From NCBI RefSeq assembly GCF_014652235.1, contig NZ_BMYK01000037.1:1-43941 (forward strand): a stretch of 43,941 nucleotides of DNA, read 5' to 3'. Below are positions 2,934-39,597 of this stretch, in pieces. Source of the DNA: Pseudorhodoferax aquiterrae (GTDB lineage: Bacteria; Pseudomonadota; Gammaproteobacteria; Burkholderiales; Burkholderiaceae_C). Numbering within the stretch: the first letter of the stretch is position 1; each line of letters starts with the position of its first letter. Made by a program: the position numbers and the translations under genes. Under the pieces are notes generated by a model. It saw only the letters and a list, made by a program, of their open reading frames with translations, was not told where the DNA came from and searched no databases.

Positions 2934-3338
2934 GATCGTTCCTTTCTGCCATCGTCGGCGGATGCAGGCTGGGCGGCCCTGCAGGTTCTGCCGTCTCCGC
3001 AGGCGCAGGCGATTTTTTGTTAGTCGCCTAACTATTAATCTAGGCCTGCCGCGGCCGGCCGTCAACCGCCGCGGGCGGCGTCCTGGACGAATGTTGATCT
3101 CGCGCAAACCCGGACGCACCCGCGCCGCCCTCCGACGCGGGGGATCCGCGGGTACGGCCGGAAGCGATCCACCGCTGCGGCCCTCCTCTCCCGCCGGCGG
3201 ATGTCGTGCGCCGCAGACCCATCCGCGCCCCGAGGCACATGCAGGTACGGCCGGGGCACATGGCCGGTCGCTCCACGCGCGGCGGCGCGGCCGCCAATGC
3301 GCAGCGGCGCTGGGATCCGAGCCGTCCCGGCCGCGTAC
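2934..3338. other. Intergenic stretch with the promoter of the small membrane protein
   Basis: There are 405 bases between the ABC binding-protein stop and the small membrane protein start, both on the minus strand. The only structure I see is an A/T-rich island at about 3011-3042 that carries a promoter and an operator. The remaining part (3066-3338) is G+C-rich, and its open frames show no recognisable protein. Confidence 0.6.
3020..3065 (-). promoter_or_regulatory. Promoter with TTAG-N4-CTAA operator (site A)
   Basis: On the minus strand, TTGACG (3065-3060) and TAGATT (3042-3037) are separated by exactly 17 bases and form a good sigma-70 promoter reading toward the gene starting at 2933. 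The perfect 5-bp-arm palindrome GTTAG-TCGC-CTAAC (3019-3032) sits five bases downstream of the -10. That places it over the likely transcription start, a typical repressor position. The same 12-mer core recurs at 39509-39520, and variants occur at 20149-20182, 25683-25694 and 28558-28569. Confidence 0.65.
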
Positions 3339-4505
3339 TCAGCGCAGCATGCGTCCGTTGTGCGTCATCACCAGGATGTCGGCCACGTCGATGCCGCTGG
3401 CGATCTTTCCCTCGGTCGGCGCGGAGAAGGAGACGCCGCCGAGGGACACCCCCTGCATCGCGCGCAGGGTGGCCTGGAGCGCGGGGCGCGTCAGCCCGGG
3501 TGCGCGCCGCAGGCCTTCCAGCAGCACCTGCGCGTTGATGTAGCCTTCGAACGAACTGAGGGACAGCCGGTCGTAGTTCCGGGCCTTCATCGCTGCCTGG
3601 TATTCGCGCGCCAGGGGAAGCAGCGTCGCATAGGGGTTCGGCACGACGCTGGAGAAGGCCGTGCCAACCGCATCGGCGCCCACTTGCTCCCACACCGAGC
3701 GCTCATCGACCGTGGAAAGGCAGACCATCTGCGCCCACAGTTTCGTCGCCACCTTGGCGCGGATGGCGGCGATCCCGGTCGCGGTCACGCCACCGACCAC
3801 TACTACGTCGGCGCCGCTGCGCTCGATGCTCCGCGCCTGCTCGGTGTAGTCGGTGGCGTCCCGCGCATAGGGCACGGCGGCGACGAGCGGCAGTCCCTGC
3901 GCCTTCAGCACCGACTCGAACTGCGCGCGGAACGCCGTGCCCGAGTTGTCGGTCGCGTGCAGCACGGCGAAGCGGCTCCGGCCAATGGTGGGAAACAACG
4001 CGGCGATCGCGCGGGTCTCCGCGTCGAACGTCGCTCGCACATGGGTGACGATCTCGGTCCCCGGGCGGCGGAATGCATCGTTTCCGTGCAGCACGCCGAC
4101 GATCGGCACGCCCGCGCGGGTCGCCGCCGGAATGGCGGCGCCGATGATCGGGCCGCCGAACAAAGAGGTCACCGCGACGACGGATTCCCTTGCCGCCAGC
4201 GACCCGATGGCCTCGACGGTCTTCTCGGCCTGGTACCCGTTGTCGATGGCCAGGAGCTTGACGGGCTGCCCCCGGATCCCTCCAGCGCGGTTCGCCTGTT
4301 CGAGCGCTCCGTCCACGCCCTGCCTGATCATCTCGGCCTGGCGCGCCTGTCCTCCCTGCAAAGGAAGCAGCATCGCGATCTGGATCTCGCGCGCCGCCGC
4401 CCGCGCTCGGAACGGCAATCCGACGGCCGCCGCTGCGAGCACCCCTCCGATGCACGAAAAGGTGCGGCGCCGCGCTCGGTCGGTACCCGTAGGTTCAGTG
4501 TTCAT
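3339..4505 (-). CDS. ABC-transporter periplasmic binding protein (branched-chain amino acid / aromatic type)
   Basis: This 388-aa protein belongs to the Leu/Ile/Val-binding family (periplasmic binding protein type 1). The start at 4505 is supported by GGAGAGAGG upstream. An N-terminal export signal follows (residues about 10-30), with RARRRTFS before a hydrophobic stretch, which is Tat-like, and cleavage after RARA is plausible. The mature part begins REIQIAMLLPLQGGQA and has the family's GSLAARESVVAVTSLFGGP and FEGYINAQVLLEGL segments. Proteins of this type are often recruited for aromatic acids as well as amino acids. No permease or ATPase genes are nearby, so it is an orphan receptor here. 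The substrate is unknown. Confidence 0.85.
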   Translation of the reverse strand: MNTEPTGTDRARRRTFSCIGGVLAAAAVGLPFRARAAAREIQIAMLLPLQGGQARQAEMIRQGVDGALEQANRAGGIRGQPVKLLAIDNGYQAEKTVEAIGSLAARESVVAVTSLFGGPIIGAAIPAATRAGVPIVGVLHGNDAFRRPGTEIVTHVRATFDAETRAIAALFPTIGRSRFAVLHATDNSGTAFRAQFESVLKAQGLPLVAAVPYARDATDYTEQARSIERSGADVVVVGGVTATGIAAIRAKVATKLWAQMVCLSTVDERSVWEQVGADAVGTAFSSVVPNPYATLLPLAREYQAAMKARNYDRLSLSSFEGYINAQVLLEGLRRAPGLTRPALQATLRAMQGVSLGGVSFSAPTEGKIASGIDVADILVMTHNGRMLR

Positions 4506-4836
4506 TGTCTGCCTCTCTCCATCATTGGTGCGCGCGATCGGTGCCGCAGCCCCACGCCGGCCGGTCGCGCTGACTTTTTGCGAGGCGACTCTAAACACTT
4601 TGTCGCGCGCTTGATAGATTGAGTCTCAGTCAATGTGAGTCCGCCGCGCGGGTGCGACTTCCGCACGGACAGAGGCCTGCATCGCCGGGCGGGGTACTGC
4701 CCGCATGCGTCCTGCATCTCGCCGAGGGCGGCTGCGCCGCACCGGGCCATATGCGCCGAAAGGCCGTGGCCTGCAAGGCTGTCACCACGGACGGCCCGGC
4801 GGGCATCGGACACGCCGAGCCGGGCCGACCGGGCCT
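4506..4836. other. Intergenic region upstream of the ABC binding protein
   Basis: These 331 bases without a gene lie between two minus-strand genes, so they should hold the promoter of the binding protein and the end of the LysR gene's transcript. The one clear structure is an inverted repeat, ATTGA-N7-TCAAT, at 4618-4634 in a locally A/T-richer patch. It could be an operator. The N7 spacing argues against an FNR box. I see no RNA gene. Confidence 0.5.
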
Positions 4837-5748
4837 TCACGCCGGCCGGAGGACTTCGGAGACCGTCAGCCGCACCAGGTCCAGCGTGGTCTTCTGGACC
4901 TGCGTGGCGGGGCGTTGCAGGCTGGTCGCCAGGGACAGCGCTATGCGCAGCGGCGGCGCACCGATGACCTGGGCGCTGTAGGCAGAAGGAACAGGCGAAT
5001 TGAGCAGCGCGTTGCGCGGCAGCACCGCGTACCCGGCCCCGTCGGCCACCATGTCCAGGATGGCGGCGACCCCGTCGATCTCCAGCGCGATCTCGGGCCG
5101 GCAGCCGATGAGCGCCATCTCGGCTTCCACGTGCATGCGGATCGCGTTGGGGCGCGAGGGAATGACCAGCGGCAGCCGCGCGAGCTCGGCGAGCGCGATG
5201 GGGCCGGGCGGCGGGTCCTCGGCCAGCCCGCGCGGGCGGGCGCGCACGAGCAGCAGATCCTCGTCCATGAGGTGCGACACATCCACATCGCGCACCGGCT
5301 GGCCGTTGTAGAGCACGACGATGTCCAGGCGACCGCTGACCAGTCCTCTCAGGAGTTCGCTCGAAAGCCCTTCGCTGATCGAGAGCCGAGCCTCCGGCAA
5401 TTCCTTGCGGAAGGCGCGCATGAGCGGCACCGCCATCGCGCGCGCCACGCTGCTGGGCAGCCCGATGGCGACGGCGCCCGAGACGCCGCCGCGCAGGCGC
5501 TCCATGTCCTCCCGCGCCCGGGCCATCTGGTGCAGGATGCCCCGCCCATGGTCGACCAGCAACCGGCCCGCCTCCGTGGGCGTGACGCCGCGGCCATTGC
5601 GCACCAGCAGGTTCTGGCGCAGCTCCACCTCCAGCAGGCGCACCTGCCGGCTCAGGGCCGACTGGGCCATGCCGAGGGCCGCCGCGGCATGGGTGAAGCT
5701 GCCCATTTCGGCGACCCGCACAAAGTACTCGAGCTGCTTCAGATCCAT
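4837..5748 (-). CDS. LysR-type regulator, probable activator of the protocatechuate 4,5-cleavage operon
   Basis: This is a 303-aa LysR-family transcription factor. The start at 5748 (MDLKQLEYF) is the family's usual beginning; the reading frame extends further upstream but without homology. The winged helix-turn-helix covers residues 1-60, with MGSFTHAAAALGMAQSALSR as the recognition region. The effector domain follows (LPSSVARAMAVPLMRAF and the conserved VADGAGYAVLPRN near the C-terminus). It is transcribed divergently from the pmd-type operon across 95 bases, the classical LysR arrangement, so the likely inducer is an intermediate of protocatechuate or phthalate breakdown. The inducer cannot be read from the sequence. 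Confidence 0.9.
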   Translation of the reverse strand: MDLKQLEYFVRVAEMGSFTHAAAALGMAQSALSRQVRLLEVELRQNLLVRNGRGVTPTEAGRLLVDHGRGILHQMARAREDMERLRGGVSGAVAIGLPSSVARAMAVPLMRAFRKELPEARLSISEGLSSELLRGLVSGRLDIVVLYNGQPVRDVDVSHLMDEDLLLVRARPRGLAEDPPPGPIALAELARLPLVIPSRPNAIRMHVEAEMALIGCRPEIALEIDGVAAILDMVADGAGYAVLPRNALLNSPVPSAYSAQVIGAPPLRIALSLATSLQRPATQVQKTTLDLVRLTVSEVLRPA

Positions 5749-5843
5749 CGACAAATGAGATATCTGGTAGACCAATCCGCCACTTCTTGTATAGCTGGAA
5801 TTGCAGCAGAATACCCCAAAATACTTAGCCACCAAACAATCCT
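5749..5843. promoter_or_regulatory. Divergent promoter region between LysR and the pmd-type operon
   Basis: This 95-base gap between divergent starts is noticeably A/T-richer than its surroundings. A LysR protein would be expected to bind here. A symmetric ATT-N7-AAT element at 5800-5812 is a weak candidate; no perfect T-N11-A palindrome stands out. I cannot place the -35 and -10 boxes with confidence. Confidence 0.45.
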
Positions 5844-6533
5844 ATGAATGCTCCGCTTCGTGGAATCTCCTCCATGGCCACCCGCCAGGTGTTGGCCGAG
5901 CTGCTGGCCGCCTACGAGCAGCAGACCGGCCAGCGCGCAGCCATCGAGGCCGTGGGCGGCGTGGACGCGGCCAAGCGGGTGCAGGCCGGCGAGGCTTTCG
6001 ACGTGGTGGTGCTTGCCTCTGACGCCATCGACAAGCTCATCGCGGCCGGCGCCGTCGTGGCCGGCAGCAGGACCGACTGGGTGCGCTCCGGCGTGGCCGT
6101 GGCGGTGCGCGCGGGCGCGCCGCTGCCCGACATCGGCTCGGAAGACGCAGTGCGCAGTGCCGTGCTGGCCGCGCGCAGCATCAGCTATTCCACCGGCCCG
6201 AGCGGCGTGGCGCTGGCGAAACTGTTCGAGCGCTGGGGCATTGCCGACCAGGTGGCCGGCCGCATGGTGCAGGCCCCGCCCGGCGTGCCCGTGGGCTCCC
6301 TGGTGGCACGTGGCGATGTGGAGCTCGGCTTCCAGCAACTGAGCGAGCTGCTGCACGTGGAGGGCATCACCATCGTGGGCCCGCTGCCGCCTGCGATCCA
6401 GATCACCACCATTTTTTCATCGGGCGTCGCTGCCTCCAGCCAGCAGCCCGAGGCCGCCAAGGCGCTGCTCGACTTCTTCGCATCGCCAGCGGCGGCCGAA
6501 GCCAAGCAACGCCAGGGCATGGACCCTGCCTGA
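5844..6533 (+). CDS. ModA-like substrate-binding domain protein lacking a signal peptide
   Basis: This 229-aa protein has the type 2 periplasmic-binding fold of the molybdate-binding ModA family (SSMATRQVLAELLAAYEQQTG at the start, FDVVVLASDAIDKL, STGPSGVALAKLFERWG, and AKALLDFFASPAAAEAKQRQGMDP at the end). The N-terminus runs straight into the fold with no export signal, so it would be cytoplasmic. It is the first gene of the protocatechuate meta-cleavage operon, 33 bases before the OMA hydratase. I recall similar ModA-like genes in related operons, with no proven function. It may bind a pathway acid or act as a tautomerase-like helper, but neither is demonstrated. Confidence 0.75.
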   Translation: MNAPLRGISSMATRQVLAELLAAYEQQTGQRAAIEAVGGVDAAKRVQAGEAFDVVVLASDAIDKLIAAGAVVAGSRTDWVRSGVAVAVRAGAPLPDIGSEDAVRSAVLAARSISYSTGPSGVALAKLFERWGIADQVAGRMVQAPPGVPVGSLVARGDVELGFQQLSELLHVEGITIVGPLPPAIQITTIFSSGVAASSQQPEAAKALLDFFASPAAAEAKQRQGMDPA

Positions 6534-6566
6534 ACCCGAACACCAAGATCCAAGGAGCACAACGCA

Positions 6567-7601
6567 ATGAGCCTCATCATCGACTGCCATGGCCACTACA
6601 CCACGGCACCCAAGGCGCTGGAGAACTGGCGCAACCAGCAGATCGCCGGCATCAAGGACCCGGCCGCCATGCCCAAGGTCGCCGATTTGCAGATCAGCGA
6701 CGACGAGCTGCGCGAGTCCATCGAGACCAACCAGCTGCGCCTGATGAAGGAGCGCGGCAGCGACATCACGCTGTTCTCGCCGCGCGCCAGTTTCATGGCC
6801 CACCACATCGGCGACTTCAATGTCTCCAGCACCTGGGCGGCCATCTGCAACGAGCTGTGCCACCGCGTCTCCACCCTGTTCCCCGACAACTTCGTGCCCG
6901 TGGCCATGCTGCCGCAAAGCCCCGGGGTGGACCCCGCGACCTGCATCCCCGAGCTGGAGAAGTGCGTCAAGGAATACGGCGCGGTGGGCATCAACCTCAA
7001 CCCCGACCCCTCGGGCGGCCACTGGACCAGCCCGCCGCTGACCGACCGCCACTGGTACCCCATCTACGAGAAGATGGTGGAGTACGACCTGCCCGCCATG
7101 ATCCACGTGAGCACCAGCTGCAACGCGTGCTTCCACACCACGGGCGCGCACTACCTGAACGCCGACACCACGGCCTTCATGCAGTGCATCCAGGGCGACC
7201 TGTTCAAGGACTTCCCCACGCTCAAGTTCCTGATCCCGCACGGCGGCGGTGCCGTGCCCTACCACTGGGGCCGTTTCCGCGGCCTGGCGCAGGAGATGAA
7301 GAAGCCCCTGCTCGAAGACCACCTGCTGAACAACATCTTCTTCGACACCTGCGTGTACCACCAGCCGGGCATCGACCTGCTGAACACCGTGATCCCGGTG
7401 AAGAACGTGCTGTTCGCCTCCGAAATGATCGGCGCGGTGCGCGGCATCGACCCCACCACCGGCCACTACTACGACGACACCAAGCGCTACATCGAAGCGT
7501 CGAAGATCCTGAGCGGCGACGACAAGCACCAGATCTACGAAGGCAATGTGCGCCGCGTGTTCTCCCGACTCGATTCACGACTGAAGGCAAAGGGGCTCTG
7601 A
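6567..7601 (+). CDS. pmdE: 4-oxalomesaconate hydratase (amidohydrolase superfamily)
   Basis: This 344-aa amidohydrolase-fold enzyme matches the LigJ/PmdE type, which hydrates 4-oxalomesaconate to 4-carboxy-4-hydroxy-2-oxoadipate in the protocatechuate 4,5-cleavage pathway. Metal and active-site motifs are visible: IDCHGHY near the N-terminus, [13 protein letters not shown] in the middle, [16 protein letters not shown], and [13 protein letters not shown] toward the C-terminus. GGAG lies upstream of the ATG. Only one base separates its stop from the aldolase start, so the two are co-translated. No PrpF-type oxalomesaconate tautomerase (LigU/PmdU) is in the window, so that step must be spontaneous or encoded elsewhere. 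Confidence 0.92.
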
Positions 7602-7602
7602 C

Positions 7603-8286
7603 ATGTACGAATTAGGCGTTGTCTACCGCAACATCACCCGCGCCGATCGCGCAGCCGCTGACGGCCTGGCTGCCCTCGGCTCGGCTACCGTGCACGAGGC
7701 CATGGGCCGCGTGGGCCTGCTCAAGCCCTACATGCGCCCCATCTACGGCGGCCAGCAGGTCAGCGGCACAGCCGTCACCGTGCTGCTGCAGCCCGGCGAC
7801 AACTGGATGATGCACGTGGCGGCCGAGCAGATCCAGCCCGGCGACGTGGTGGTGGCGGCCGTCACCTCCGAATGCACCGATGGCTATTTCGGCGACCTGC
7901 TGGCCACCTCGTTCCAGGCGCGCGGTGCGCGGGCGCTCATCATCGACGCCGGCGTGCGCGACGTGAAGACCCTGCAGGAGATGAATTTCCCCGTGTGGAG
8001 CCGCGCCATTTCCAGCAAGGGCACGATCAAGGCCACGCTGGGCTCGGTCAACATCCCGGTGGTGTGCGCCGGCATGTGGGTCACGCCGGGCGACGTGATC
8101 GTGGCCGACGACGATGGCGTGGTCTGCGTGCCCGCCGCGCGCGCCGCCGAGACGCTCGAGGCCGCGCGCAAGCGCGAGAGCTTCGAGGGCGAGAAACGCG
8201 CCAAGCTCGCCTCGGGCGTGCTCGGCCTGGATATGTACAACATGCGCCCCGGGCTCGAAAAGGCCGGGCTGCGCTACATCGACTGA
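7603..8286 (+). CDS. pmdF: 4-carboxy-4-hydroxy-2-oxoadipate aldolase (RraA fold)
   Basis: This 227-aa class II aldolase of the RraA-like fold (LigK/PmdF/GalC type) cleaves 4-carboxy-4-hydroxy-2-oxoadipate to pyruvate and oxaloacetate, the final step of the pathway. The family core [25 protein letters not shown] holds the substrate Arg and metal-binding Asp (GVRD, about residues 122-125). The [18 protein letters not shown] segment is typical of the family. Length is normal. It lies immediately after the hydratase and 11 bases before the oxidoreductase gene. Confidence 0.93.
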
Positions 8287-8297
8287 GGACCTACGCC

Positions 8298-9230
8298 ATG
8301 CCCATCCCCGCATCGGCGCAGGACTGGCACATCGGCCTCGTCGGCTACGGCGAGGTCGGCCGCATTCTCTGCGAGGACCTGCGCGCCCAGGGGCTGCGCG
8401 TCTCGGCCTACGACCGCAAGCTCGGCGGTGCGCTACAACGGCCCTTGTTGGAGCACGCGCGGGCCCATGGCGTCGAGTTGCTCGACAGCCACGCCCGGCT
8501 CGCGGCCACTGCCGACTTCGTGATCAGCGCCGTCACCGCCAGCCAGACGCTGGACGTGGCCCGGGCGTGCGCTCCGCAGGTGCGCAAGGAAGCCTTCTAT
8601 CTGGACTTCAACTCGGCCTCCCCGGGTGCCAAGCAGGCGGCCGGCGCGCTGATTGATGCGGCCGGTGCCCGGTACGTCGAAGGCGCGGTGATGACCAGCA
8701 TTCCACCTTACCGCATCAAGGTCCCGCTGCTGCTGGGCGGCGCCTCGGCCAGGGCGCTGGCCGAGGCCATCGCGCCGCTGGGCTTCGTCGCCAAGGTCGT
8801 CAGCGACCGGCTGGGCGTGGCCTCGGCCACCAAGATGTGCCGCAGCGTGATGGTCAAGGGCCTGGAGGCGATGGTGATCGAGAGCTTCACGGCCGCGCGG
8901 CACTACGGCGTGGAGGACGCGGTCATCGCCTCGCTCCAGGAGACCTTTCCCGGCATCGACTGGGAGAAGCAGGGCGCCTATTTCTTCCAGCGCGTGATCG
9001 AGCATGGCCGCCGCCGCAGCGAGGAGATGCACGAGTCCGCGAACACGGTGCGCGAAGCGGGCATGCCCGCCTTCTCCGCGCAGGGCACAGCCGAGCGCCA
9101 GGCCTGGATGGCGGACCGCGCGGACGCCGGGTCGTTCGGCGAACGCGGCGCTCCGGGATTCGCGCGCGCCGCCGACTGGCGCGCCGAGGCCGACCGCCTG
9201 TTGCAATCTCTCAAGGAACCCACCGCATGA
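8298..9230 (+). CDS. NAD(P)-dependent oxidoreductase, 6-phosphogluconate/beta-hydroxyacid dehydrogenase superfamily with DUF1932-type C-terminus
   Basis: The 310-aa product has an N-terminal Rossmann fold (IGLVGYGEVGRILCEDL, the GxGxxG-type loop at about residues 12-22) and FYLDFNSASPGAKQAAG, the substrate-binding segment of hydroxyacid dehydrogenases. The conserved lysine of this superfamily is probably in ATKMCRSVMVKGLEAM. The C-terminal half resembles DUF1932. It sits inside the meta-cleavage operon and overlaps the PDC hydrolase by four bases (ATGA), so it must serve the same route, yet no step of the textbook pathway needs it. It may reduce or oxidise a side product of the 2-hydroxy or 2-oxo acid type. 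Confidence 0.8.
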   Translation: MPIPASAQDWHIGLVGYGEVGRILCEDLRAQGLRVSAYDRKLGGALQRPLLEHARAHGVELLDSHARLAATADFVISAVTASQTLDVARACAPQVRKEAFYLDFNSASPGAKQAAGALIDAAGARYVEGAVMTSIPPYRIKVPLLLGGASARALAEAIAPLGFVAKVVSDRLGVASATKMCRSVMVKGLEAMVIESFTAARHYGVEDAVIASLQETFPGIDWEKQGAYFFQRVIEHGRRRSEEMHESANTVREAGMPAFSAQGTAERQAWMADRADAGSFGERGAPGFARAADWRAEADRLLQSLKEPTA

Positions 9231-10147
9231 GCACTTTCACGAAAACCCCAGGCTGGCTCGACTGGTACGCCGGACCCAGCAAGCCCCGCTTCCAGGTGCC
9301 GCCCGGCAGCGTGGACGCGCACTGCCACGTGTTCGGCCCGGGCGCGGAGTTCCCCTACGCGCCCGAGCGCAAGTACACGCCCTGCGATGCCTCGAAGCAC
9401 GAGCTGTACGCGCTGCGCGACCACCTGGGCTTTGCCCGCAACGTGGTGGTGCAGGCCACCTGCCACGGCGCCGACAACCGCGCCATGGTCGATGCCTGCC
9501 TGTCCAGCGGTGGCAAGGCGCGCGGCGTGGCCACGGTCAAGCGCTCGGTGACCGATGAAGAATTGCAGGCCCTGCACGCCGCCGGTGTGCGCGGCGTGCG
9601 CTTCAACTTCGTCAAGCGCCTGGTGGACTTCACGCCCAAGGACGAGCTGCTGGAGATCGCCGGCCGCATCGCCAAGCTCGGCTGGCATGTGGTGATCTAC
9701 TTCGAGGCGGTGGACCTGCCCGAGCTGTGGGATTTCTTCACGGCCTTGCCTACCACCGTGGTGGTGGACCACATGGGCCGGCCCGACGTGACCAAGCCCA
9801 TCGATGGGCCCGAGTTCGAGCTGTTCCTGAAGTTCATGCGCCAGCACCCCAACGTGTGGAGCAAGGTCAGTTGCCCCGAGCGCCTGTCGGTCACCGGGCC
9901 GAAGGCGCTCAACGGCGAGCAGGCGGCCTACCAGGACGTGGTGCCGTTCGCGCGAAAGGTGGTGGAGGAGTTCCCCGACCGCGTGCTCTGGGGCACCGAC
10001 TGGCCGCACCCCAACCTCAAGGACCACATGCCCGACGACGGCCTGCTGGTGGACTTCATCCCCCACATCGCGCCCACGGCCGAGCTGCAAAAGAAGCTGC
10101 TCGTGGACAACCCCATGCGCCTGTATTGGCCCGAAGAGGCGAAGTAA
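9227..10147 (+). CDS. pmdD: 2-pyrone-4,6-dicarboxylate hydrolase
   Basis: This 306-aa amidohydrolase of the LigI/PmdD family opens the lactone 2-pyrone-4,6-dicarboxylate to 4-oxalomesaconate. The signature VDAHCHVFGPGAEFPY is near residue 25-40. RGVRFNFVKRLVD and VVVDHMGRPD follow, and LWGTDWPHPN near residue 260 carries the catalytic Asp. The ATG overlaps the preceding stop as ATGA. The gene is followed after 12 bases by the dioxygenase alpha subunit, which matches the Comamonas E-F-D-A-B-C order. A second, more distant member of this family lies at 15527-16441. Confidence 0.93.
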   Translation: MSTFTKTPGWLDWYAGPSKPRFQVPPGSVDAHCHVFGPGAEFPYAPERKYTPCDASKHELYALRDHLGFARNVVVQATCHGADNRAMVDACLSSGGKARGVATVKRSVTDEELQALHAAGVRGVRFNFVKRLVDFTPKDELLEIAGRIAKLGWHVVIYFEAVDLPELWDFFTALPTTVVVDHMGRPDVTKPIDGPEFELFLKFMRQHPNVWSKVSCPERLSVTGPKALNGEQAAYQDVVPFARKVVEEFPDRVLWGTDWPHPNLKDHMPDDGLLVDFIPHIAPTAELQKKLLVDNPMRLYWPEEAK

Positions 10148-10159
10148 GGAGAGCGCGCC

Positions 10160-11483
<1,324 letters not shown>

Positions 11484-11523
11484 GGCTGGCTGATTTCGAA
11501 TCAACCCGTAAAGGACCCCCACC

Positions 11524-12483
11524 ATGACCATCAAAGTAGCCCTGGCCGGCGCCGGCGCCTTCGGCATCAAGCACCTGGACGGCATCAAGAACATCGACGG
11601 TGTCGAAGTCGTCTCCCTCGTCAGCCGCGACCTGGCCAAGACCCGGGAAGTGGCCGACAAGTATGGCATCCAGCACGTGACCACCAAGCTCGAAGACAGC
11701 CTGGCCATCAAGGAAGTGGACGCGGTGATCCTCTGCACCCCCACGCAGATGCATGCCAGCCAGTCCATCGCCTGCCTGGAAGCCGGCAAGCACGTGCAGG
11801 TCGAGATCCCGCTGTGCGACGTGCTGGCCGACGGCGAGAAGGTCGCCGCCCTGCAGAAGCAGACCGGCCTCGTCGCCATGTGCGGCCACACCCGCCGCTT
11901 CAACCCCAGCCACCAGTACGTGCACAAGAAGATCAAGGCGGGCGAGTTCAATATCCAGCAGATGGATGTGCAGACGTTCTTCTTCCGCCGCACCAACATG
12001 AACGCGCTGGGCCAGCCGCGCAGCTGGACCGACCACCTGCTGTGGCACCACGCCGCCCACACCGTGGACCTGTTCGCCTACCAGGCCGGCAGCCCGATCG
12101 TGAAGGCCAACGCGATCCAGGGCCCGATTCACAAGGAGCTGGGCATCGCGATGGACATGAGCATCCAGCTGCAGGCAGCCAACGGCGCCATCTGCACGCT
12201 CAGCCTCTCGTTCAACAACGACGGCCCGCTGGGCACCTTCTTCCGCTACATCGGCGACACCGCCACCTACATCGCGCGCTACGACGACCTGGTGCAGTCG
12301 CACAGCAAGGGCCCCGAGACGCCGGTGGACGTGAGCCAGGTCGACGTGAGCATGAACGGCATCGAGCTGCAGGACCGCGAGTTCTTCGCCGCGATCAAGG
12401 AAGGCCGGGAGCCCAATGCCAGCGTGGCACAGGTCCTGCCGTGCTACCAGGTGCTGAACGGCCTGGAACGGCAACTCAACTGA
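11524..12483 (+). CDS. pmdC: 4-carboxy-2-hydroxymuconate-6-semialdehyde dehydrogenase
   Basis: This 319-aa Gfo/Idh/MocA-family dehydrogenase (LigC/PmdC type) oxidises the ring-cleavage product, as its intramolecular hemiacetal, to 2-pyrone-4,6-dicarboxylate with NADP. The Rossmann loop is at the N-terminus (VALAGAGAFGIKHLDGI), and CTPTQMHASQSI with GKHVQVEIPLCD follow. The conserved MCGHTRRFNPSHQYVH and the WHHAAHTVDLFAYQ active-site helix (His pair near residue 177-180) are present. It is the sixth of the core E-F-D-A-B-C genes. A second, distinct Gfo/Idh/MocA member is the phthalate dihydrodiol dehydrogenase at 33477-34655. Confidence 0.94.
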   Translation: MTIKVALAGAGAFGIKHLDGIKNIDGVEVVSLVSRDLAKTREVADKYGIQHVTTKLEDSLAIKEVDAVILCTPTQMHASQSIACLEAGKHVQVEIPLCDVLADGEKVAALQKQTGLVAMCGHTRRFNPSHQYVHKKIKAGEFNIQQMDVQTFFFRRTNMNALGQPRSWTDHLLWHHAAHTVDLFAYQAGSPIVKANAIQGPIHKELGIAMDMSIQLQAANGAICTLSLSFNNDGPLGTFFRYIGDTATYIARYDDLVQSHSKGPETPVDVSQVDVSMNGIELQDREFFAAIKEGREPNASVAQVLPCYQVLNGLERQLN

Positions 12484-20838: not shown

Positions 20839-20842
20839 AAGC

Positions 20843-21910: not shown

Positions 21911-21922
21911 GCGGAGCACCCA

Positions 21923-28482: not shown

Positions 28483-28858
28483 GTGGGCTCCGCGCGATTC
28501 CAGCGTTCGACGGCACGTAAATCCCGAAACCGCGCTATGTCTCCGTAGGTCTAATCATTAGGTCTCTAATTATCTCACAGGCTGCCAGGCAGAAGACGGC
28601 GGCACTGGCCCGGCGGGTTCCGGCGTGCGTTCCATGGGGCATCCATGCCACTCGCCTGTGGCGCGCGGGGTCCACTGGGTGGCATCGTCGACTCGTCGAC
28701 CCACATCGAGACCGATGCGGCGCGGCTGGCCGCTCGGGCGCACTGCGCCGCGGCGGGACCGATGCATTTGAGGGATTGGGGAGAGCGTGGCACTGCCGCG
28801 AGGCGCGGTGCGCTTCCATGGCGCGCCGCACCCAGGGCGCGGCCATCGGCAGCGCGGG
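28483..28858. other. Intergenic region between MarR and the HTH-citrate-synthase gene
   Basis: These 376 bases lie between two minus-strand genes. The first part (to 28574) is the leader and promoter with operator site D. The rest is G+C-rich with no recognisable gene; small minus-strand frames (28535-28905) show no family features. GTCGAC occurs twice in close succession at about 28690, with no clear meaning. Confidence 0.5.
28551..28574 (-). promoter_or_regulatory. Overlapping palindromes and -10 (site D) upstream of the HTH-citrate-synthase gene
   Basis: CTAAT-C-ATTAG (28551-28561) and ATTAG-GTCT-CTAAT (28557-28570) overlap, giving a compound operator with the TTAG-N4-CTAA core at 28558-28569. 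GATAAT on the minus strand (28574-28569) is a good -10 overlapping the operator, so a bound protein should block transcription. The -35 is not clear. The GGTCTCTAAT half is shared exactly with site F at 39586-39595. Confidence 0.6.
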
Positions 28859-33476: not shown

Positions 33477-34655
33477 TCAGCGCAGCAGCTCCACGTCCTT
33501 GCCCGAGCCCGCCGACTCGAGCAGCGCCAGGCACACCTCCAGCGTGGAGCGCGCCCATTCGCCGTCATGCAGCGGCGCGGTCCCGTTCACCACGGCCTCG
33601 TACAGTTCGTCGATGACCTCGAAGCGGGGCACCGCGGGCCGGCCCAGCGGCCGCCGCTCCTTCGTGAGGTCCCCGTACACGCAGACGCTGTCGGGCAACG
33701 GACGGATATCGCCGCGCTCGCAGGACACCACGACCGGCCCGAAATGCTGGTGCCACGCCGGCGGCGCGCCCGCGGACGCGGGCACGTAGCCGGGCCCGCC
33801 ATAGGTGCCGGCCGCCTTCAGGCGCGCCTCCTCCTCCGGCGAACCCACGGTCGCCAGCTTGCGGCGCGCGGCGCCGTACGCCTCGGGCGACTTCTCGGCG
33901 CCCATCTCGCCGATCCAGCCGCACCATTCGTCCGAGTCGAAGTGCCCGTAGCCGTTGTAGCTGACGCTGGCGAACGCCCCGCCCTCGAACCACAGCAGGG
34001 CCGAATAGGCGCCCTGGGTCGGGCGCCTGGGGTCCCAGTCGCCTGTGATCGCGCGCACCCGGCTGACCCGCGTGCCGGCCAGCAGGCGCACGATGTCGAC
34101 CTGGTGGGCGGCCTGGCTGAACACCACGCCGCCGCCCTCCTCCGTGCGCAGCTCCTCGGGACGCCGCGGCCGGTAGAGGAAGTCGGTGTAGTTGAGCGCG
34201 TGGATCATGCGCACCCGCCCGAACTCACCGCCCAGGGCGATCTCGCGCGCGCGCAGGTACGGCGTGTCGAAGCTGTGGCAGTGGCCGACGATGAGGTGCA
34301 CGCCGGCGTCCCGGCAGTCCCGGATCATCGCGTTGCAGTCGCCGAGGGACAGCGCCATGGGCTTTTCCACGAGCACGTGCTTGCCGTGCCGGGCGGCGAT
34401 GCGCGCCTGCTCCGCGTGGAACTGGTGCGGGCTGGCGATGTAGATCGCCTCGACGTCCGGGTTGGACGCCAGGCCCTCGATGTCCGGGTACACCGGCGCA
34501 TCGAAGTCGCTCGCGAAGCGCTCGCGCGCCGGCTCGCGCGGGTCGCAGGCCGCCACCAGCCGCACGCGCGCGTCGCGCTGGAGCGTGGGCAGCATGAGCG
34601 TGAAGGCGCGGCCGAGTCCGGCGACGCCGAGTCGAAGTGGGCGGCCGGCGTTCAC
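33477..34655 (-). CDS. ophB: Phthalate 4,5-cis-dihydrodiol dehydrogenase (Gfo/Idh/MocA family)
   Basis: This 392-aa Gfo/Idh/MocA dehydrogenase fits the Pht4/OphB type, which oxidises 4,5-dihydro-4,5-dihydroxyphthalate to 4,5-dihydroxyphthalate with NAD(P). The Rossmann loop is at the N-terminus ([14 protein letters not shown]). [26 protein letters not shown] with the catalytic Lys, VGHCHSFD and [19 protein letters not shown] follow. The start is GTG at 34655, overlapping the reductase stop by four bases (GTGA). It is the last gene of the phthalate operon. The family is broad, so the assignment leans on the surrounding dioxygenase, reductase and decarboxylase genes. Confidence 0.85.
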
Positions 34656-35629
34656 AGGTCGATCACCAGTTCGTCGGACTTGGCCCGGGAGACGCAGATC
34701 ATGATCTGGCTGTCCATCTCCTCGGGCAGCAGCACCATGTCTCGGTGGTCGGCCTCGCCGCTCAGCAGCTTCGTGCGGCAGGTGCCGCAGGTGCCGCTCT
34801 CGCACGAGGACGCCGCGTTGCAGCCGTGCTCGTGGAGGACCGACAGGATGGACTTGCCGACGGGCACCTCGAACGCCGCGCCTGAGCTGGCCAGCTTCAC
34901 CAAGAAGGGCTTGTCGTCGGGCCGCACGCCCCCGCCCTCGTTGAAGCTCTCGAAGTGCACGTTGGCCGGCGACCAGTGGCCCGTCATGTCGCGCACCGCC
35001 TCCATCAGCGCGCGCGGGCCGCAGCAGTACACGTGGGCCGTGTTGGGCTTCTCCAGCACCGGCCAGAGGTCGAAGGCGCGCGCGGGGTCCCCGTGGCTGT
35101 GGTGGATCCGCACGCGGCTCTTGAGCTCGGGGGCGCCGAGCTCCTCGCGGAAGGCCGCAGTCTCGGGAAAGCGCGTCAGGTAGATGAGCTTCCACGGTGC
35201 CGGCGGCAGTTCGCCGAACGAGCGGATCATGGACAGGATCGGGGTGATGCCGATGCCGCCCGCGACGAAGAGGTAGCCCTTGGCGTTCTCGACCAGCGGG
35301 AAGGCATTCGAAGGCAGCGACGTGGGCAGCGTATCGCCCTCATGCAGTTCCTCGTGCATGGAGAGCGAGCCGCCCTGCCCCTCCGGATCGCGCTTGACGG
35401 CGATGACGTAGCGGTGGCGCTCCGCGGGATCGTTGCACAGCGAATACTTGCGCAGCATGCCATTGGGGGCCTGGACCTTGACGTGCGATCCCGGCGTGAA
35501 CGGCGGCAGCTCGCTGCCATCGGGCTGTACCAGCTCGAAGCTGCGGATGTCGCGCGCCACGTCGAGGATCCGCGCCACGCGCAACGGCATCTGCGTGTCG
35601 GAATGGGTTTGGGGTGTGGTGAGCGTCAT
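34652..35629 (-). CDS. ophA1: Phthalate 4,5-dioxygenase reductase
   Basis: This 325-aa class IA oxygenase reductase passes electrons from NADH through FMN and a plant-type [2Fe-2S] centre to the Rieske oxygenase. The FMN/flavin domain comes first (RKYSLCNDP, about residue 59), then the NAD domain ([15 protein letters not shown] and [13 protein letters not shown]). The C-terminal ferredoxin domain has [15 protein letters not shown] with a last Cys in MICVS. The order flavin, NAD, ferredoxin is that of phthalate dioxygenase reductase. It starts nine bases after the Bug receptor stop and overlaps ophB. Confidence 0.92.
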
Positions 35630-35638
35630 GACGCGCGA

Positions 35639-36616
35639 CTACTCGGCCTTCAGCTGCGCCCGCGCGGCGGCGTCGGTCACCTGGGCCTTCTCTGCACGCA
35701 GCGCCCGCGCGAGCTGTTCGGGCGTTCCGCCCGCCGGGTCGACGCCCGCAGTGCGCAGCTGCTCGATGACCTCGGGGACCTTCACGATCCTGTTGATCTC
35801 GGCATTGACCTTGGAGATGACCTCGCTCGGCGTACCGGTCTTCGCCAACACCGCGACCGTGAATGCGAAATCGAAGCCGGGGATCTTTTCCGCCAGGGTA
35901 GGCATCTGCGGTGCCAGCGGGGAACGCGTCGTCGAATTGGTGGCCAGAAGGCGCGCCTGGCCCGACTTGACGAAGCCCATGAGCGACGGCGGCGAAGCGA
36001 ACACCATGTCCACCTGTCCGCCGATCATCGCGGGGACCGAGACGGCGCTGCCCCTGAACGGAATGTGCGTCATCGAGATGCCCAGGCTTGCATTCATCGC
36101 CTCCATCGTCAGGTGGTGGATGCTGCCGTTGCCGGCGGAGCCGTAGTTGAGGCCCCCTGGCTTCGCCTTGGCCAGCGCGACGAGTTCGTCCAGCGTGTTC
36201 GCCTTGACGTTCGCGTTGACGGCGAGGAACAGCGGGGCCTTGCCGACGAGGGCGATCGGCACGAAGTCGTTGGCCGCGTCGTAGGTGATCTTCTTGTTGA
36301 TCAACGGCGTGATCGACAGCATCGGCCCATCGGTCACCAGCAGCGTGTAGCCGTCAGCCGGGGACTGCAGGATCGCGGAGGCGGCGACCGAGCCACCCGC
36401 ACCGGGCCGGTTGTCGACGTAGACCGCCTGCCCCAGCGTATCGCCCAGCGACTTGGCGATGATGCGCGCCACCGTGTCGGGAAGGCCGCCGGCGGCATAG
36501 GGAACGACGAGCTTGATGGCGCGGCTCGGATAGGCCTGGGCATGGGCCAGGGAGCCGAATGCGAGTTGGGCGATGCAGGCCAGGCCAACCAGCCAGGCGG
36601 GGATCTTGTGCTTCAT
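35639..36616 (-). CDS. Bug/TctC-family periplasmic substrate-binding protein in the phthalate operon
   Basis: This 325-aa receptor starts at 36616 (MKHKIPAWLVGLACIAQLAF), with the signal peptide ending AHAQA. AIKLVVPYAAGGLPDTVAR, VDNRPGAGGSVAASA and DGYTLLVTDGP are the family motifs. It lies inside the operon between the dihydroxyphthalate decarboxylase and the reductase, so phthalate is the obvious candidate ligand. Known phthalate clusters usually carry an MFS permease (OphD type) instead; none is visible here. The partner membrane subunits must be encoded elsewhere. Confidence 0.9.
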   Translation of the reverse strand: MKHKIPAWLVGLACIAQLAFGSLAHAQAYPSRAIKLVVPYAAGGLPDTVARIIAKSLGDTLGQAVYVDNRPGAGGSVAASAILQSPADGYTLLVTDGPMLSITPLINKKITYDAANDFVPIALVGKAPLFLAVNANVKANTLDELVALAKAKPGGLNYGSAGNGSIHHLTMEAMNASLGISMTHIPFRGSAVSVPAMIGGQVDMVFASPPSLMGFVKSGQARLLATNSTTRSPLAPQMPTLAEKIPGFDFAFTVAVLAKTGTPSEVISKVNAEINRIVKVPEVIEQLRTAGVDPAGGTPEQLARALRAEKAQVTDAAARAQLKAE

Positions 36617-36648
36617 GGTGGGTGTCTCCAGTTGTGGGTGGTGCGGGA

Positions 36649-37638
36649 TCAGATGCTGTAGGTCTCGTAGGTCGCGGGGTGGAAGAGCTCGCTGACCGGC
36701 ACGTGGCGCGATGACAGGCCCTGCTCGTAGTGGGCCCGCACGAAGGTCTCCAGCGTCCTGGCCGAGGCCGCCACGCCGTACGACCAGAAGTCGTCCCCCA
36801 TCGCCTCGCGGGCAGCCTGCAGCTGCTCCTCGACGAAGGGCAGCGTGACCTTGGTGGCCGAGGTGTCCGACAGCAGCTCCAGCGCGGCGGCCTTGGACTG
36901 GGTGAAGGCCTTGACGAGCGCGGCGGGAAGCCAGGGGTGCTTGGCGGCGAGTTCCTTCCTGACGGCCGCCACGTGCATGATCGGGAACACGCCCGTGCGC
37001 CGGTAGTAGTCCTTGGCCACCGCGGTCGGGTCGTCGAACAGCCAGCCGATGTTCGGGTTGGCGAGCGCCGACCGGCTCGGCGGGCGCGGCGCCATGAAGC
37101 CATCGATCTCCCCGCGGTCGAGCATCTGCGAGATCGTCGCCCCCTCGGGCGCCTGCTCGATCCGGACGTCGTCCGGCAGCTGCAGCTTGACCTTCTCGGG
37201 CCGCCCCGGCGTCTCGATGCCCCCGCGCACCCAGGTCACGTCGGAGGGGCGCACGCCGAAGTCGTCCTGCAGGATCGCGCGCGCCCACACGTTGGCGGTG
37301 AGCTGGTATTCGGGCAAGCCGATGCGCTTGCCCTTCAGGTCGGCCGGCTCGCGGATGCGGTCCTTGCGCACGTAGATCGACGTGTGCCGGAACGCCCGCG
37401 AGAGAAACACCGGTAGCGCGATGTAAGGGCACTCGCCCCGCGAGTGCTTCACCAGGTAGCTGGAGAACGAGAGCTCGGTGATGTCGAAATCGACGCTACG
37501 CATCGCCCGGAAGAACATCTCCTCGGGATTGAGGAGCATGTACACGGGATCGACGCCGTCGATCTGAACGCGGCCGTCGAACAGCGCGCGGGTGCGGTCG
37601 TAGTCGCCCATGGCGACGGAGAGTTGGAGTTTGCTCAC
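36649..37638 (-). CDS. ophC: 4,5-dihydroxyphthalate decarboxylase
   Basis: This 329-aa protein is of the Pht5/OphC family, which removes the 2-carboxyl of 4,5-dihydroxyphthalate to give protocatechuate. The fold resembles type 2 periplasmic binding proteins (LQLSVAMGDYDRTRALFDGRV, LKGKRIGLPEYQLTANVWAR, ILQDDFGVRPSDVTWVRGG), and there is no signal peptide, so it is cytoplasmic. The start is GTG at 37638, four bases after the oxygenase stop. Its product is the substrate of the dioxygenase at 10160-11483, which connects the two halves of the island. Confidence 0.9.
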   Translation of the reverse strand: MSKLQLSVAMGDYDRTRALFDGRVQIDGVDPVYMLLNPEEMFFRAMRSVDFDITELSFSSYLVKHSRGECPYIALPVFLSRAFRHTSIYVRKDRIREPADLKGKRIGLPEYQLTANVWARAILQDDFGVRPSDVTWVRGGIETPGRPEKVKLQLPDDVRIEQAPEGATISQMLDRGEIDGFMAPRPPSRSALANPNIGWLFDDPTAVAKDYYRRTGVFPIMHVAAVRKELAAKHPWLPAALVKAFTQSKAAALELLSDTSATKVTLPFVEEQLQAAREAMGDDFWSYGVAASARTLETFVRAHYEQGLSSRHVPVSELFHPATYETYSI

Positions 37639-37642
37639 GGGA

Positions 37643-38962
37643 TCAGGACTTCACGGAATAGGAGGGTTCGAACTCGGGACGGTTTTCGCCGTCCAGCCAG
37701 ACATAGCGGGTCTCGTAGGTGCGCCAGTCGGTCGTCTTGGGGACGATGGCCTGGAAGGAGCAGACGGCCGGCGTGGCCGCCTCGGCGCCGGTGCCGATGG
37801 CAGGCGCCCCCTGGTCGAAGGCTTGCACGGCCTCGAGCATCTGCTTGCGGAATTCCACGATCGCCAAGTCGCTGGCGCCCAGACGGTCATGCGTGCGGTC
37901 GGCGATGGCGCCCATGGTCAGCCACATCGCCACGTCCTGGTTCGGGAAGCCGGTGATGCCCGTGAAGTTGCCGGCCTTCATGGCGTTGCGGTCCTGCCAG
38001 AACTTGTTCGCCTCGTTGCGCAGGGGGCGGTAGTTCTGGTCCAGGTCGACACCCACCGTCTGGCGCAGGAACTTGCGCCAGGTGTCGGTCTCCGGCGTCT
38101 GCGACGGGTGGCCCCAGGCGATGAAATAGAACGCCGTGCTCGTGTCGTCCATCGGCACGTTGATGTTGGCCACGTTGTAGAGGTTGTTGGGCGGGATCAG
38201 GGCCGTGGCCGGTGCCACGAACACCGTCGAGCGCACGTAGTCGTTCTCCGCGGCGTTCGTGATCGGGCGGCGCAGCGCGGCATAGCGGAAGCCGAAGCCG
38301 GTGCGCTGCACCTGCATGCGCGGCGCCTTGTCGGTGGACGGGCGCAGCCAGGTCTTGTCCGTGGCCTTCGCGCCGTCCACGCGCGCAGGAACCATGTCGG
38401 AGGAGTGAAGGCTGGAGCTGTGCGCGGAGTCGATGGCACCCTCGAGGATCTGCGCCCAGTTGCACGGCAGCAGCACTTTCGCGATGCTCACCCGCGTGTC
38501 CGCCGTCGGCGCCCACGGCGGCGGCTGGAATTCGGGCATGGTCTCCTTGGGCCCCATGTAGGCCCACACCATGCCAGCCCATTCCTTGGTGGGGTACGCG
38601 GTGTGCTTGACCTTGTCGACCATGCCGCTCGAAGCCGGCTCGGAAGCCATCTCCAGCACGTTCCCGTCGACGTCCATCTTCCAGCCGTGGTAGAGGCAGC
38701 GAAGCCCTCCCTCCTCGTTGCGGCCGTAGACCAGCGACGCGCGACGGTGGGGACAGTACTCATCCATGACGCCGACCCGGCCGTCGCTGTCGCGGAAGAC
38801 CACAAGGTCCTCGCCGAACGCCCGCGCCTTCACCGGCGTGCCGTCGGGTTCGCTCACCTCTTCCACGAGGCAGATGGGCATCCAGTGGCGGCGCATCAGG
38901 CGTCCCATCGGGGCGTCGCCTTCGACGCGGCAAAGCAGTTCGTTCTCTTCGTGAGTCATCAT
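37643..38962 (-). CDS. ophA2: Phthalate 4,5-dioxygenase, Rieske oxygenase component
   Basis: This is a 439-aa oxygenase of the phthalate dioxygenase type (homo-oligomeric, no beta subunit). The Rieske centre is at about residues 66-95 (YCPHRRASLVYGR then RCLYHGWKMD: C-x-H-x16-C-x2-H). The mononuclear iron site lies around EGAIDSAHSSSLHS (Asp and two His, near 175-188). It adds O2 across C4-C5 of phthalate to form the cis-dihydrodiol. The N-terminus MMTHEENELLCRVEGDAPMG is characteristic of the family. It is preceded by the hemerythrin gene (44-base gap) and followed by ophC after four bases. Confidence 0.92.
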   Translation of the reverse strand: MMTHEENELLCRVEGDAPMGRLMRRHWMPICLVEEVSEPDGTPVKARAFGEDLVVFRDSDGRVGVMDEYCPHRRASLVYGRNEEGGLRCLYHGWKMDVDGNVLEMASEPASSGMVDKVKHTAYPTKEWAGMVWAYMGPKETMPEFQPPPWAPTADTRVSIAKVLLPCNWAQILEGAIDSAHSSSLHSSDMVPARVDGAKATDKTWLRPSTDKAPRMQVQRTGFGFRYAALRRPITNAAENDYVRSTVFVAPATALIPPNNLYNVANINVPMDDTSTAFYFIAWGHPSQTPETDTWRKFLRQTVGVDLDQNYRPLRNEANKFWQDRNAMKAGNFTGITGFPNQDVAMWLTMGAIADRTHDRLGASDLAIVEFRKQMLEAVQAFDQGAPAIGTGAEAATPAVCSFQAIVPKTTDWRTYETRYVWLDGENRPEFEPSYSVKS

Positions 38963-39006
38963 GATGTCATCTCATCTCTAGTGGTGGTTGCTTCAGGGGG
39001 GTTGAA

Positions 39007-39468
39007 CTAGCAGGCCAGGGCGGCCTCGGGCTTTCGGCCCACGCGCAGCACCACGGGCTTGGCGCCGTGCTGCAGCTTGCAGAGCCAATGGGTGAGTGCC
39101 GAGTCGAGGTGCTGGACGTGGGGCGGAAACCAGGCCGCCAGCTCGTCCGCCACGCGGCGGGCCACCTCGACCTCCCCGCGCGCCAGGCGGGCACGCACGC
39201 CGCGCAGCGTGGACAGCACCGCTTCGTGCTCGCTGATGTGGCAGTCGCGCGGCGGAAACGCCGTCGTGCGCATCAACTCGTTCTCGGCCGCGAAGTGCGA
39301 GGCCGCATGCTGGAGCACCGCGTCCAGCGCCTGCGCCATCTCGGGCGCGGCGGCGCACCGCATGCGCTCGATCAGCTCGGCCAGTTGCTCGTGCTCGCCA
39401 TCGATCGCCGCATGCCCGAGCAGTAGCGAGTCTGACCAGATCGGCGCCGAGGTTTCAGTGGGGTTCAT
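39007..39468 (-). CDS. Bacteriohemerythrin
   Basis: This 153-aa single-domain hemerythrin is an O2-binding di-iron four-helix bundle. The ligand pattern is visible: LLGHAAIDGEHEQLAEL (His, His and Glu of the first helices), HAASHFAAENELM (His-x3-Glu), HISEHEAVL, and WFPPHVQHLDSALTHWL (His and Asp). The first gene behind the operator-controlled promoter, it is followed by the Rieske oxygenase. ATG 39468 is used because homology starts just after it; GTG at 39486 is an alternative, and neither has a good ribosome site. It may supply or buffer O2 for the dioxygenase, or sense O2. Confidence 0.85.
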   Translation of the reverse strand: MNPTETSAPIWSDSLLLGHAAIDGEHEQLAELIERMRCAAAPEMAQALDAVLQHAASHFAAENELMRTTAFPPRDCHISEHEAVLSTLRGVRARLARGEVEVARRVADELAAWFPPHVQHLDSALTHWLCKLQHGAKPVVLRVGRKPEAALAC

Positions 39469-39480
39469 GGCGGGGAATGC

Positions 39481-39501
39481 GGGCACCGTCTGGCGGTGCC
39501 C
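39481..39501. other. Perfect hairpin in the hemerythrin leader
   Basis: GGGCACCG, five bases and CGGTGCCC form an 8-bp stem with a 5-base loop. It would lie near the 5' end of the minus-strand transcript that starts near site E, and it contains the alternative GTG start at 39486. It could stabilise the mRNA or hide the start. On the plus strand it is followed by CGTTTTG, a poor terminator. Confidence 0.4.
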
Positions 39502-39508
39502 CGTTTTG

Positions 39509-39551
39509 TTAGTCGCCTAATGATTTTAGGGGCACACGTTGATCCGGGCAA
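39509..39551 (-). promoter_or_regulatory. Promoter of the hemerythrin-phthalate operon with operator (site E)
   Basis: On the minus strand, TTGCCC (39551-39546), 17 bases and TAAAAT (39528-39523) make a good sigma-70 promoter. Two bases after the -10 comes TTAGGCGACTAA (39520-39509), identical to the core of site A on the opposite reading. The operator covers the expected start of transcription, which points to repression released by an inducer. Confidence 0.65.
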
Positions 39552-39574
39552 CGGTTTTCCCTACGGGGTTTCCC

Positions 39575-39597
39575 TAGAATCATTTGGTCTCTAATAA
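39575..39597 (+). promoter_or_regulatory. -10 and operator-like element (site F) upstream of the quinolinate phosphoribosyltransferase
   Basis: TAGAAT (39575-39580) is a -10 candidate reading toward 39831, followed by CA and TTTGGTCTCTAA (39583-39594). This is the same -10, CA, operator arrangement as in site E on the other strand. The right half, GGTCTCTAAT, matches site D exactly. The -35 is weak, as expected for an activated or extended promoter. A hairpin GGCCGCG-N6-CGCGGCC at 39783-39802 lies just before the ribosome site. Confidence 0.55.

What the first reader, a model, noticed from the sequence alone, without database searches (positions are those of the whole stretch)
3020..39597. 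One operator-like palindrome (TTAG-N4-CTAA) repeated at six separate promoters
TTAGTCGCCTAA occurs exactly at 3020-3031 and 39509-39520. Close variants are at 20149-20160, 20169-20180, 25683-25694 (inside a 20-base perfect palindrome), 28558-28569 and 39583-39594. All lie in non-coding DNA upstream of genes: the small cysteine-motif protein, the porin, the alpha/beta hydrolase, the HTH-citrate synthase, the hemerythrin-phthalate operon and the quinolinate phosphoribosyltransferase. At several of them a -10 is directly adjacent. This points to one repressor uniting modules that look separately acquired. The only MarR protein (28859-29407) is the best candidate. I know of no described regulon of this composition.
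Basis: partly seen in the sequence, partly recalled or inferred. Interest (0 to 1): 0.87.

Follow-up and report, generated by a model that had tools for sequence, protein, structure and literature searches.

The report
Phthalate-pathway repressor sites across gene cluster
A short mirror-image DNA word stands at eight places in front of genes for eating phthalate, and comparison with other bacteria suggests that it is the switch to which the cluster's own regulator protein binds.

Summary
An eighth, at 5825, precedes the protocatechuate 4,5-cleavage operon.

The MarR guess is well supported by comparison, not by binding data. Loci found by MarR or phthalate dioxygenase protein searches, not by the motif, carry the site: in 54 of them (same-cluster copies excluded) 67 of 72 exact sites lie within 500 bp upstream of a homolog of a window gene. 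A matrix trained on other genomes puts exactly the eight window sites on top (29.2 to 18.4; ninth hit 4.2). In a 399-genome sample, all eight other genomes with a close phthalate dioxygenase have the MarR ortholog; the four with only a distant one have none.

Best reading: an OphR/PhtR-type MarR repressor, probably released by phthalate, controls uptake, phthalate oxidation, ring cleavage and a second NadC.

A MarR regulator, OphR, is already listed for phthalate genes, and the half-sites equal the SlyA box. New here, as far as searched: operator, regulon content and spread. Ordinary in kind, unusually clean in evidence.

The parts
3020..3031 (-). operator TTAGGCGACTAA (read towards the gene) before a small cysteine-motif protein at 2637-2933; TTGACG-N17-TAGATT just upstream
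   Evidence: exact match; matrix score 25.9; conserved in three related clusters; promoter
   Evidence: one mismatch; matrix score 18.4; counterparts in three related clusters
20149..20160 (-). operator TTAGGCGTCTAT, one of a pair before the porin (gene start near 19988); also 0.7 kb upstream of the divergent TctC-TPP-aldehyde dehydrogenase operon at 20897
   Evidence: one mismatch; matrix score 21.0; conserved in four related clusters
20169..20180 (-). operator TTAGGCGACTAT, second of the porin pair, 20 bp from the first
   Evidence: one mismatch; matrix score 20.8; conserved in four related clusters
25683..25694 (+). operator TTAGTCGATTAA before the alpha/beta hydrolase at 25806-26855
   Evidence: one mismatch; matrix score 22.7; identical in three related clusters
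28558..28569 (-). operator TTAGAGACCTAA before the citrate synthase-like gene at 27199-28482
   Evidence: exact match; matrix score 29.2; half-sites unchanged in four related clusters while the spacer varies
39509..39520 (-). operator TTAGGCGACTAA before the hemerythrin-phthalate operon; TTGCCC-N17-TAAAAT just upstream
   Evidence: exact match; matrix score 25.0; one half-site change in NB1; promoter
39583..39594 (+). operator TTTGGTCTCTAA before the second NadC (39825-40688)
   Evidence: one mismatch; matrix score 24.2; half-sites unchanged in three related clusters
28859..29407 (-). MarR-family regulator, proposed to bind the eight operators
   Evidence: Pfam MarR 5.6e-10; 38 loci with relatives of 55-99% identity; association with sites
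33477..39486 (-). phthalate 4,5-pathway run: hemerythrin, Rieske dioxygenase, decarboxylase, TctC, reductase, dihydrodiol dehydrogenase
   Evidence: Pfam; names from annotated relatives
39825..40688 (+). second quinolinate phosphoribosyltransferase (NadC)
   Evidence: NCBIfam nadC 2.7e-94; another copy on contig C10, 52% identical
5844..12483 (+). protocatechuate 4,5-cleavage operon (SBP-like, amidohydrolases, RraA-like/LigK, LigB, Gfo/Idh/MocA)
   Evidence: Pfam; annotated relative with ligK, ligA and extradiol dioxygenase beta subunit
20897..25230 (+). TctC, TPP-dependent decarboxylase-like enzyme, aldehyde dehydrogenase
   Evidence: Pfam; homologs beside MarR in other groups

Best explanation
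The eight palindromes are operators of the MarR-family protein encoded at 28859-29407, an OphR/PhtR-type regulator of ortho-phthalate breakdown. A dimer would bind TTAG-N4-CTAA, with AT-rich outer arms, over or next to the promoter and block transcription; phthalate or a near metabolite would release it. The regulon then covers uptake (porin, TctC proteins), supply and oxidation of phthalate to protocatechuate, protocatechuate 4,5-cleavage, and a second NadC that would keep NAD synthesis going while phthalate, a known inhibitor of that enzyme, is inside the cell. Shown here: the sites, their rarity, their conservation, and their association with MarR orthologs and phthalate genes. Inferred: binding, repression, ligand and the NadC role.
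For: First-ranked palindrome in the window and in 38 MarR-ortholog loci (45 seen, 0.21 expected). 67 of 72 exact sites in 54 loci stand upstream of a homologous gene, in 39 loci the phthalate dioxygenase. 40 of 47 close dioxygenase genes have an exact site within 700 bp. Presence and absence agree in the 399-genome sample. A matrix from other genomes finds exactly the eight window sites. Half-sites differ at 1 of 216 letters between related clusters, the spacer at 29 of 108.
Against: No binding or expression data. The MarR gene has no operator of its own (best upstream score -5.5). Sites of the same form precede another MarR gene on contig C2 (scores 23.9 and 20.9), so the word is not exclusive to this protein. 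One close dioxygenase locus, Sphingobium L120, has a MarR of 33% and no site. In NB1 one operator has lost a half-site letter. The matrix was trained on sites chosen by the exact core.
Confidence: 0.8

Rival explanations
1. The sites are bound by a different MarR/SlyA-like protein of the genome acting in trans, and the local MarR recognises something else.
For: 28 MarR-domain matches in the genome, 20 over the cut-off; the exact SlyA box stands before one of them on contig C2.
Against: The site follows the local MarR ortholog and the phthalate genes across groups, and only 5 exact sites exist in the genome, 3 of them here.
Confidence: 0.1
2. The sites are AT-rich promoter elements that look alike by chance in a GC-rich genome.
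For: They overlap or adjoin -10-like sequences.
Against: First of 2,816 patterns; half-sites kept while the spacer changes; 87 of 200 family genomes have no exact site; simulated sequences never reach the eighth score (30 runs).
Confidence: 0.02
3. One of the two LysR-type regulators in the window uses these sites.
For: LysR genes at 4837-5835 and 32371-33291; operator 5825 lies beside the first.
Against: In the loci the homologs of these LysR genes are seen mainly in the near-copies of this cluster, while the MarR is there throughout. The T-N11-A form of LysR sites is recalled and was not tested.
Confidence: 0.03
4. The MarR binds the sites but acts as an activator or by displacing another repressor, as SlyA does with H-NS in E. 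coli.
For: SlyA, which binds the same half-sites, activates by antagonising H-NS (PMC5797941, abstract start, passages).
Against: At 3020 and 39509 the operator begins just after a good -10, where a bound protein would block transcription.
Confidence: 0.08

Closest known systems
OphR/PhtR, MarR-family regulator named for phthalate genes (Han 2008 thesis, seen only as cited in a primer table of PMC5031561; PMC6051330)
   Same: MarR family; beside phthalate dioxygenase, decarboxylase, dehydrogenase, NadC or hemerythrin genes
   Different: No operator or target list was seen for either; their sequences were not compared with this one
SlyA/RovA of enterobacteria and its box TTAGCAAGCTAA (PMC5797941, passages)
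   Same: Same family, same outer half-sites TTAG and CTAA with four bases between
   Different: SlyA is a global regulator that can antagonise H-NS; here the sites cluster in one catabolic locus, and the phthalate MarR shows no close relation to SlyA in solved structures (best SlyA-like hit 43.1 bits)
MarR73 of the Variovorax auxin-breakdown locus (PMC9613470, passages; PMC12633357, passages)
   Same: MarR repressor of a Rieske-oxygenase pathway in a related genus, with the substrate as ligand
   Different: Other pathway; its 24-bp binding sequence was not given in the text seen, so the operators were not compared
CouR of Rhodococcus (PMC4737184, abstract start in the listing)
   Same: MarR repressor of aromatic acid breakdown; weak sequence similarity, 23.8 bits
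   Different: CoA-ester ligand, other pathway

Membership tests
MarR family regulator | MarR winged-helix domain | tested here: met
   PF01047 at 5.6e-10, 39.4 bits, cut-off 24.6
MarR family regulator | binds a palindromic operator as a dimer | not testable with these tools
   palindromes present and conserved; binding needs an experiment
SlyA-type operator | TTAG-N4-CTAA (consensus TTAGCAAGCTAA) | tested here: met
   three exact and five one-mismatch sites; SlyA consensus from PMC5797941
OphR/PhtR-type phthalate regulator | MarR gene beside phthalate 4,5-pathway genes | tested here: met
   window and related loci
OphR/PhtR-type phthalate regulator | sequence relation to the named OphR or PhtR | not tested
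   their sequences were not in hand
OphR/PhtR-type phthalate regulator | controls phthalate genes in answer to phthalate | not testable with these tools
   needs expression and binding tests
HpaR (homoprotocatechuate regulator) | NCBIfam TIGR02337 cut-off of 121.2 bits | tested here: not met
   41.8 bits

The most novel reading that the evidence does not exclude
One phthalate-sensing MarR controls, from a single operator type, the whole route from outer-membrane entry through the making of phthalate (the TPP enzyme, the FMN 2-hydroxyacid oxidase and the aldehyde dehydrogenase suggest a branch 2-carboxymandelate to phthalonate to 2-formylbenzoate to phthalate) to protocatechuate cleavage, and at the same time switches on a second NadC as a built-in antidote to phthalate poisoning of NAD synthesis.
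Probability: 0.4. Interest if true: 0.6.

Novelty: new member of a known kind. Interest (0 to 1): 0.5.

Why it matters
A 2026 review treats regulators of the phthalate isomers as biosensor parts; in the passages I saw it describes TphR and IphR and names the ortho-phthalate clusters only as a resource still to be used (PMC13040137). A protein with a defined operator, found in Beta-, Alpha- and Gammaproteobacteria, gives a candidate sensor and a way to map phthalate regulons by scan. The operator in front of NadC makes a specific idea testable: that cells guard NAD synthesis while they hold a competitive inhibitor of NadC.

Tried and rejected
Rejected: chance AT-rich resemblance; LysR ownership; HpaR membership. 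The one-mismatch site at G000:C7:73518 scores 20.8, but it stands between a Rieske oxygenase/reductase pair and a divergent ORF that I take by eye for a GntR-type regulator (no family search), beside another palindrome, so I treat it as another regulator's site or chance. A search for one -35/-10 layout common to the phthalate dioxygenase promoters was inconclusive: the TATAAT-like peaks beside and inside the operator appear on both strands and may be the operator itself (40 non-redundant sites). In one search five of ten site/strand cases exceed the 99% level of random window positions (8.0), but those positions are mostly coding and GC-rich, so the control is generous. Paper searches for 2-carboxymandelate/phthalonate breakdown listed no bacterial study (listing only). 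Searches for a printed operator of a phthalate MarR: (listings), with passages read; none gave one, but most subscription papers and the Han thesis are not held. No structure prediction was run.
Full report
WHAT IS THERE. The window is contig C37 (43,941 bp) of a 7.11 Mb genome; its 2-kb stretches have 65-72% GC. Exact TTAG-N4-CTAA stands at 3020, 28558 and 39509; one-mismatch forms at 5825, 20149, 20169, 25683 and 39583. Shuffles of the window give 0.01 and 0.85. Scored against all 256 four-base half-sites at 11 spacings, this palindrome is the most over-represented in the window. Genome-wide there are five exact sites, three of them here, and 40 with at most one mismatch, eight of them here. 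Of 200 family genomes, 87 have no exact site.

WHAT SURROUNDS IT. The contig carries an ortho-phthalate 4,5-pathway on the minus strand: hemerythrin, Rieske dioxygenase, decarboxylase, TctC protein, reductase, dihydrodiol dehydrogenase, and further on an FMN dehydrogenase and the MarR. On the plus strand are a NadC, a protocatechuate 4,5-cleavage operon from 5844 to 12483, and a TctC-TPP enzyme-aldehyde dehydrogenase operon; a porin lies on the minus strand (names supported by annotated relatives).

COMPARISON BY PROTEIN, NOT BY MOTIF. A search with the MarR protein in genome contigs gave 80 loci (the best of 103); 38 of them (L016-L053) have 55-99% identity. These 38 contain 45 exact sites in 626 kb, against 0.21 expected; TTAG-N4-CTAA is again the first of 2,816 patterns, and stays first (42 sites) without the four near-copies L016-L019. 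In the 42 loci of more distant MarR proteins it is not among the eight patterns printed (11 exact sites in 810 kb, two of them in L054 before a 60% identical dioxygenase). Most of the 38 loci show homologs of phthalate genes beside the MarR; L046 shows none. Of 21 such genomes asked, 20 could be searched whole: 31 of their 95 exact sites lie in the fetched MarR loci, about 0.4 of 127 Mb (hand sum).

WHERE THE SITES STAND. I counted in 54 loci (L020-L054, L097-L104, L111-L121), leaving out the same-cluster copies L016-L019 and L110, the distant MarR loci L055-L095, and L105-L109 with distant dioxygenases and no site. There are 72 exact sites in 44 of the 54; 67 lie within 500 bp upstream of a homolog of a window gene, in 39 loci the phthalate dioxygenase. 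Ten loci have no exact site: L026 and L100 have a one-mismatch site, L120 has none, and in the other seven (L021, L025, L027, L040, L046, L048, L102) the stretch held does not contain the start of a close dioxygenase. Of 47 dioxygenase genes of 57% identity or more whose start is held, 40 have an exact site within 700 bp. Of the seven that do not, L017 and L018 are cut off short of it, L026 and L100 have one mismatch, L031 and L115 have the site farther up at the start of the gene run, and L120 has none. Of seven genes of 30-40% identity one has a site (L052, whose MarR is 57% identical).

PRESENCE AND ABSENCE. A sample of 399 genomes of the order was searched with the dioxygenase: 13 have a match at 1e-80, the window's own among them. 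Eight others have dioxygenases of 67-81% identity; all eight have a MarR of 56-63% identity. Upstream of the dioxygenase six have an exact site, one has a one-mismatch site, and in one the contig is cut off. The remaining four genomes have only dioxygenases of 39-41% identity, and none has a MarR match at 1e-8; these four genes, and a second copy of 42% in one of the eight, have no exact or one-mismatch site in 700 bp. Of eight family genomes without a dioxygenase match, two have a weak MarR match (27% identity) and six none.

INDEPENDENT MATRIX. A 24-position matrix from 48 sites of other genomes (the window, NB1, Xenophilus, Curvibacter and A. carolinensis left out) was run over the window. 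The eight sites score 29.2 to 18.4; the next is 4.2; 30 second-order simulated sequences reach at most 9.6. The training sites were chosen by the exact core, so the core columns are fixed by choice. What is tested is that nothing else in the window resembles them and that all eight are intergenic in the gene table. Applied to other stretches of the genome, the matrix also scores 31.8 and 14.5 at a pair on contig C61, 23.9 and 20.9 at a pair before another MarR gene on C2, and 20.8 at a site on C7. So it is not specific to this regulator, and only the stretches around some of the 40 genome sites were scored.

FOOTPRINTS. Between the window and three or four related clusters, half-site letters differ at 1 of 216 positions and N4 letters at 29 of 108; without the near-identical NB1, 0 of 152 against 29 of 76 (strings read by hand). 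The one change is in NB1 at the hemerythrin operator. Curvibacter, which shows no homolog of the hydrolase, has no counterpart of the hydrolase site and was left out there. This is what a dimer reading two half-sites would leave.

MECHANISM. At 3020 and 39509 a good -10 begins 11 and 8 bp before the operator, with a -35 at 17 bp; elsewhere the promoter calls are weaker. Repression by covering the start region is the simplest reading, with a pathway acid as ligand. In many relatives the MarR follows the dihydrodiol dehydrogenase on the same strand, which would give feedback; in the window no operator stands before MarR. A hint at specificity: the stretch that I take by eye for the recognition helix reads PTT or PTA in the window MarR and the nine compared relatives with sites, but NTT in the Sphingobium relative, which has none (a single negative case).

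NADC. The window's NadC is a second copy, 52% identical to the one on C10, with its own operator. Phthalic acid binds human NadC with a Kd of 5.2 uM, quinolinate with 4.8 uM (PMC4726147, passages), and is called its only competitive inhibitor (PMC7890081, passages). In Burkholderia DBO1 this enzyme is said to enhance growth on phthalate without being required for its metabolism (statement in PMC6051330 citing Chang and Zylstra 1999; the original is not held). Joint control by the phthalate repressor would be the regulatory side of this; it is an inference.

NOVELTY. The kind is known: a MarR catabolic repressor, SlyA-type half-sites, and a MarR OphR already named for phthalate genes. What I did not find in print, in the searches listed under Tried and rejected, is the operator, the eight-site regulon and its spread.

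Noticed in passing
G000:C61:6481-6515 (L129): A pair of sites 23 bp apart (matrix scores 31.8 and 14.5) before an alpha/beta hydrolase gene with a lipoprotein-like start, on a 6.6 kb contig with an IS91-type transposase: a possible extra regulon member.
   Followed up: partly
G000:C2:8098-8124 (L001): The exact SlyA box TTAGCAAGCTAA and a one-mismatch site 15 bp on, just before another MarR gene: the same word is used by a paralog.
   Followed up: partly
G069:C1:1116627-1122304: In this 4.8 Mb genome all three exact sites lie within 5.7 kb around its MarR ortholog and phthalate dioxygenase.
   Followed up: no
window 20897-25230 and 30038-31207: TPP enzyme, aldehyde dehydrogenase and FMN dehydrogenase have homologs in phthalate loci of Alphaproteobacteria: a possible branch from 2-carboxymandelate or phthalonate to phthalate.
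   Followed up: partly
L110 (A. carolinensis pACP3.2): Several genes of the related cluster are split between frames there (decarboxylase, TctC, TPP enzyme, FMN dehydrogenase), so that copy looks damaged.
   Followed up: no
L017 against the window: Nearly all proteins compared are 100% identical to those of Acidovorax sp. NB1 over 20 kb (MarR 99%), which suggests recent transfer of the cluster.
   Followed up: no
window 27199-28482; L114 6176-7465: A citrate synthase-like gene stands beside the MarR here and, at 35% identity, beside the MarR of a Massilia plasmid; its role in phthalate breakdown is unclear.
   Followed up: no
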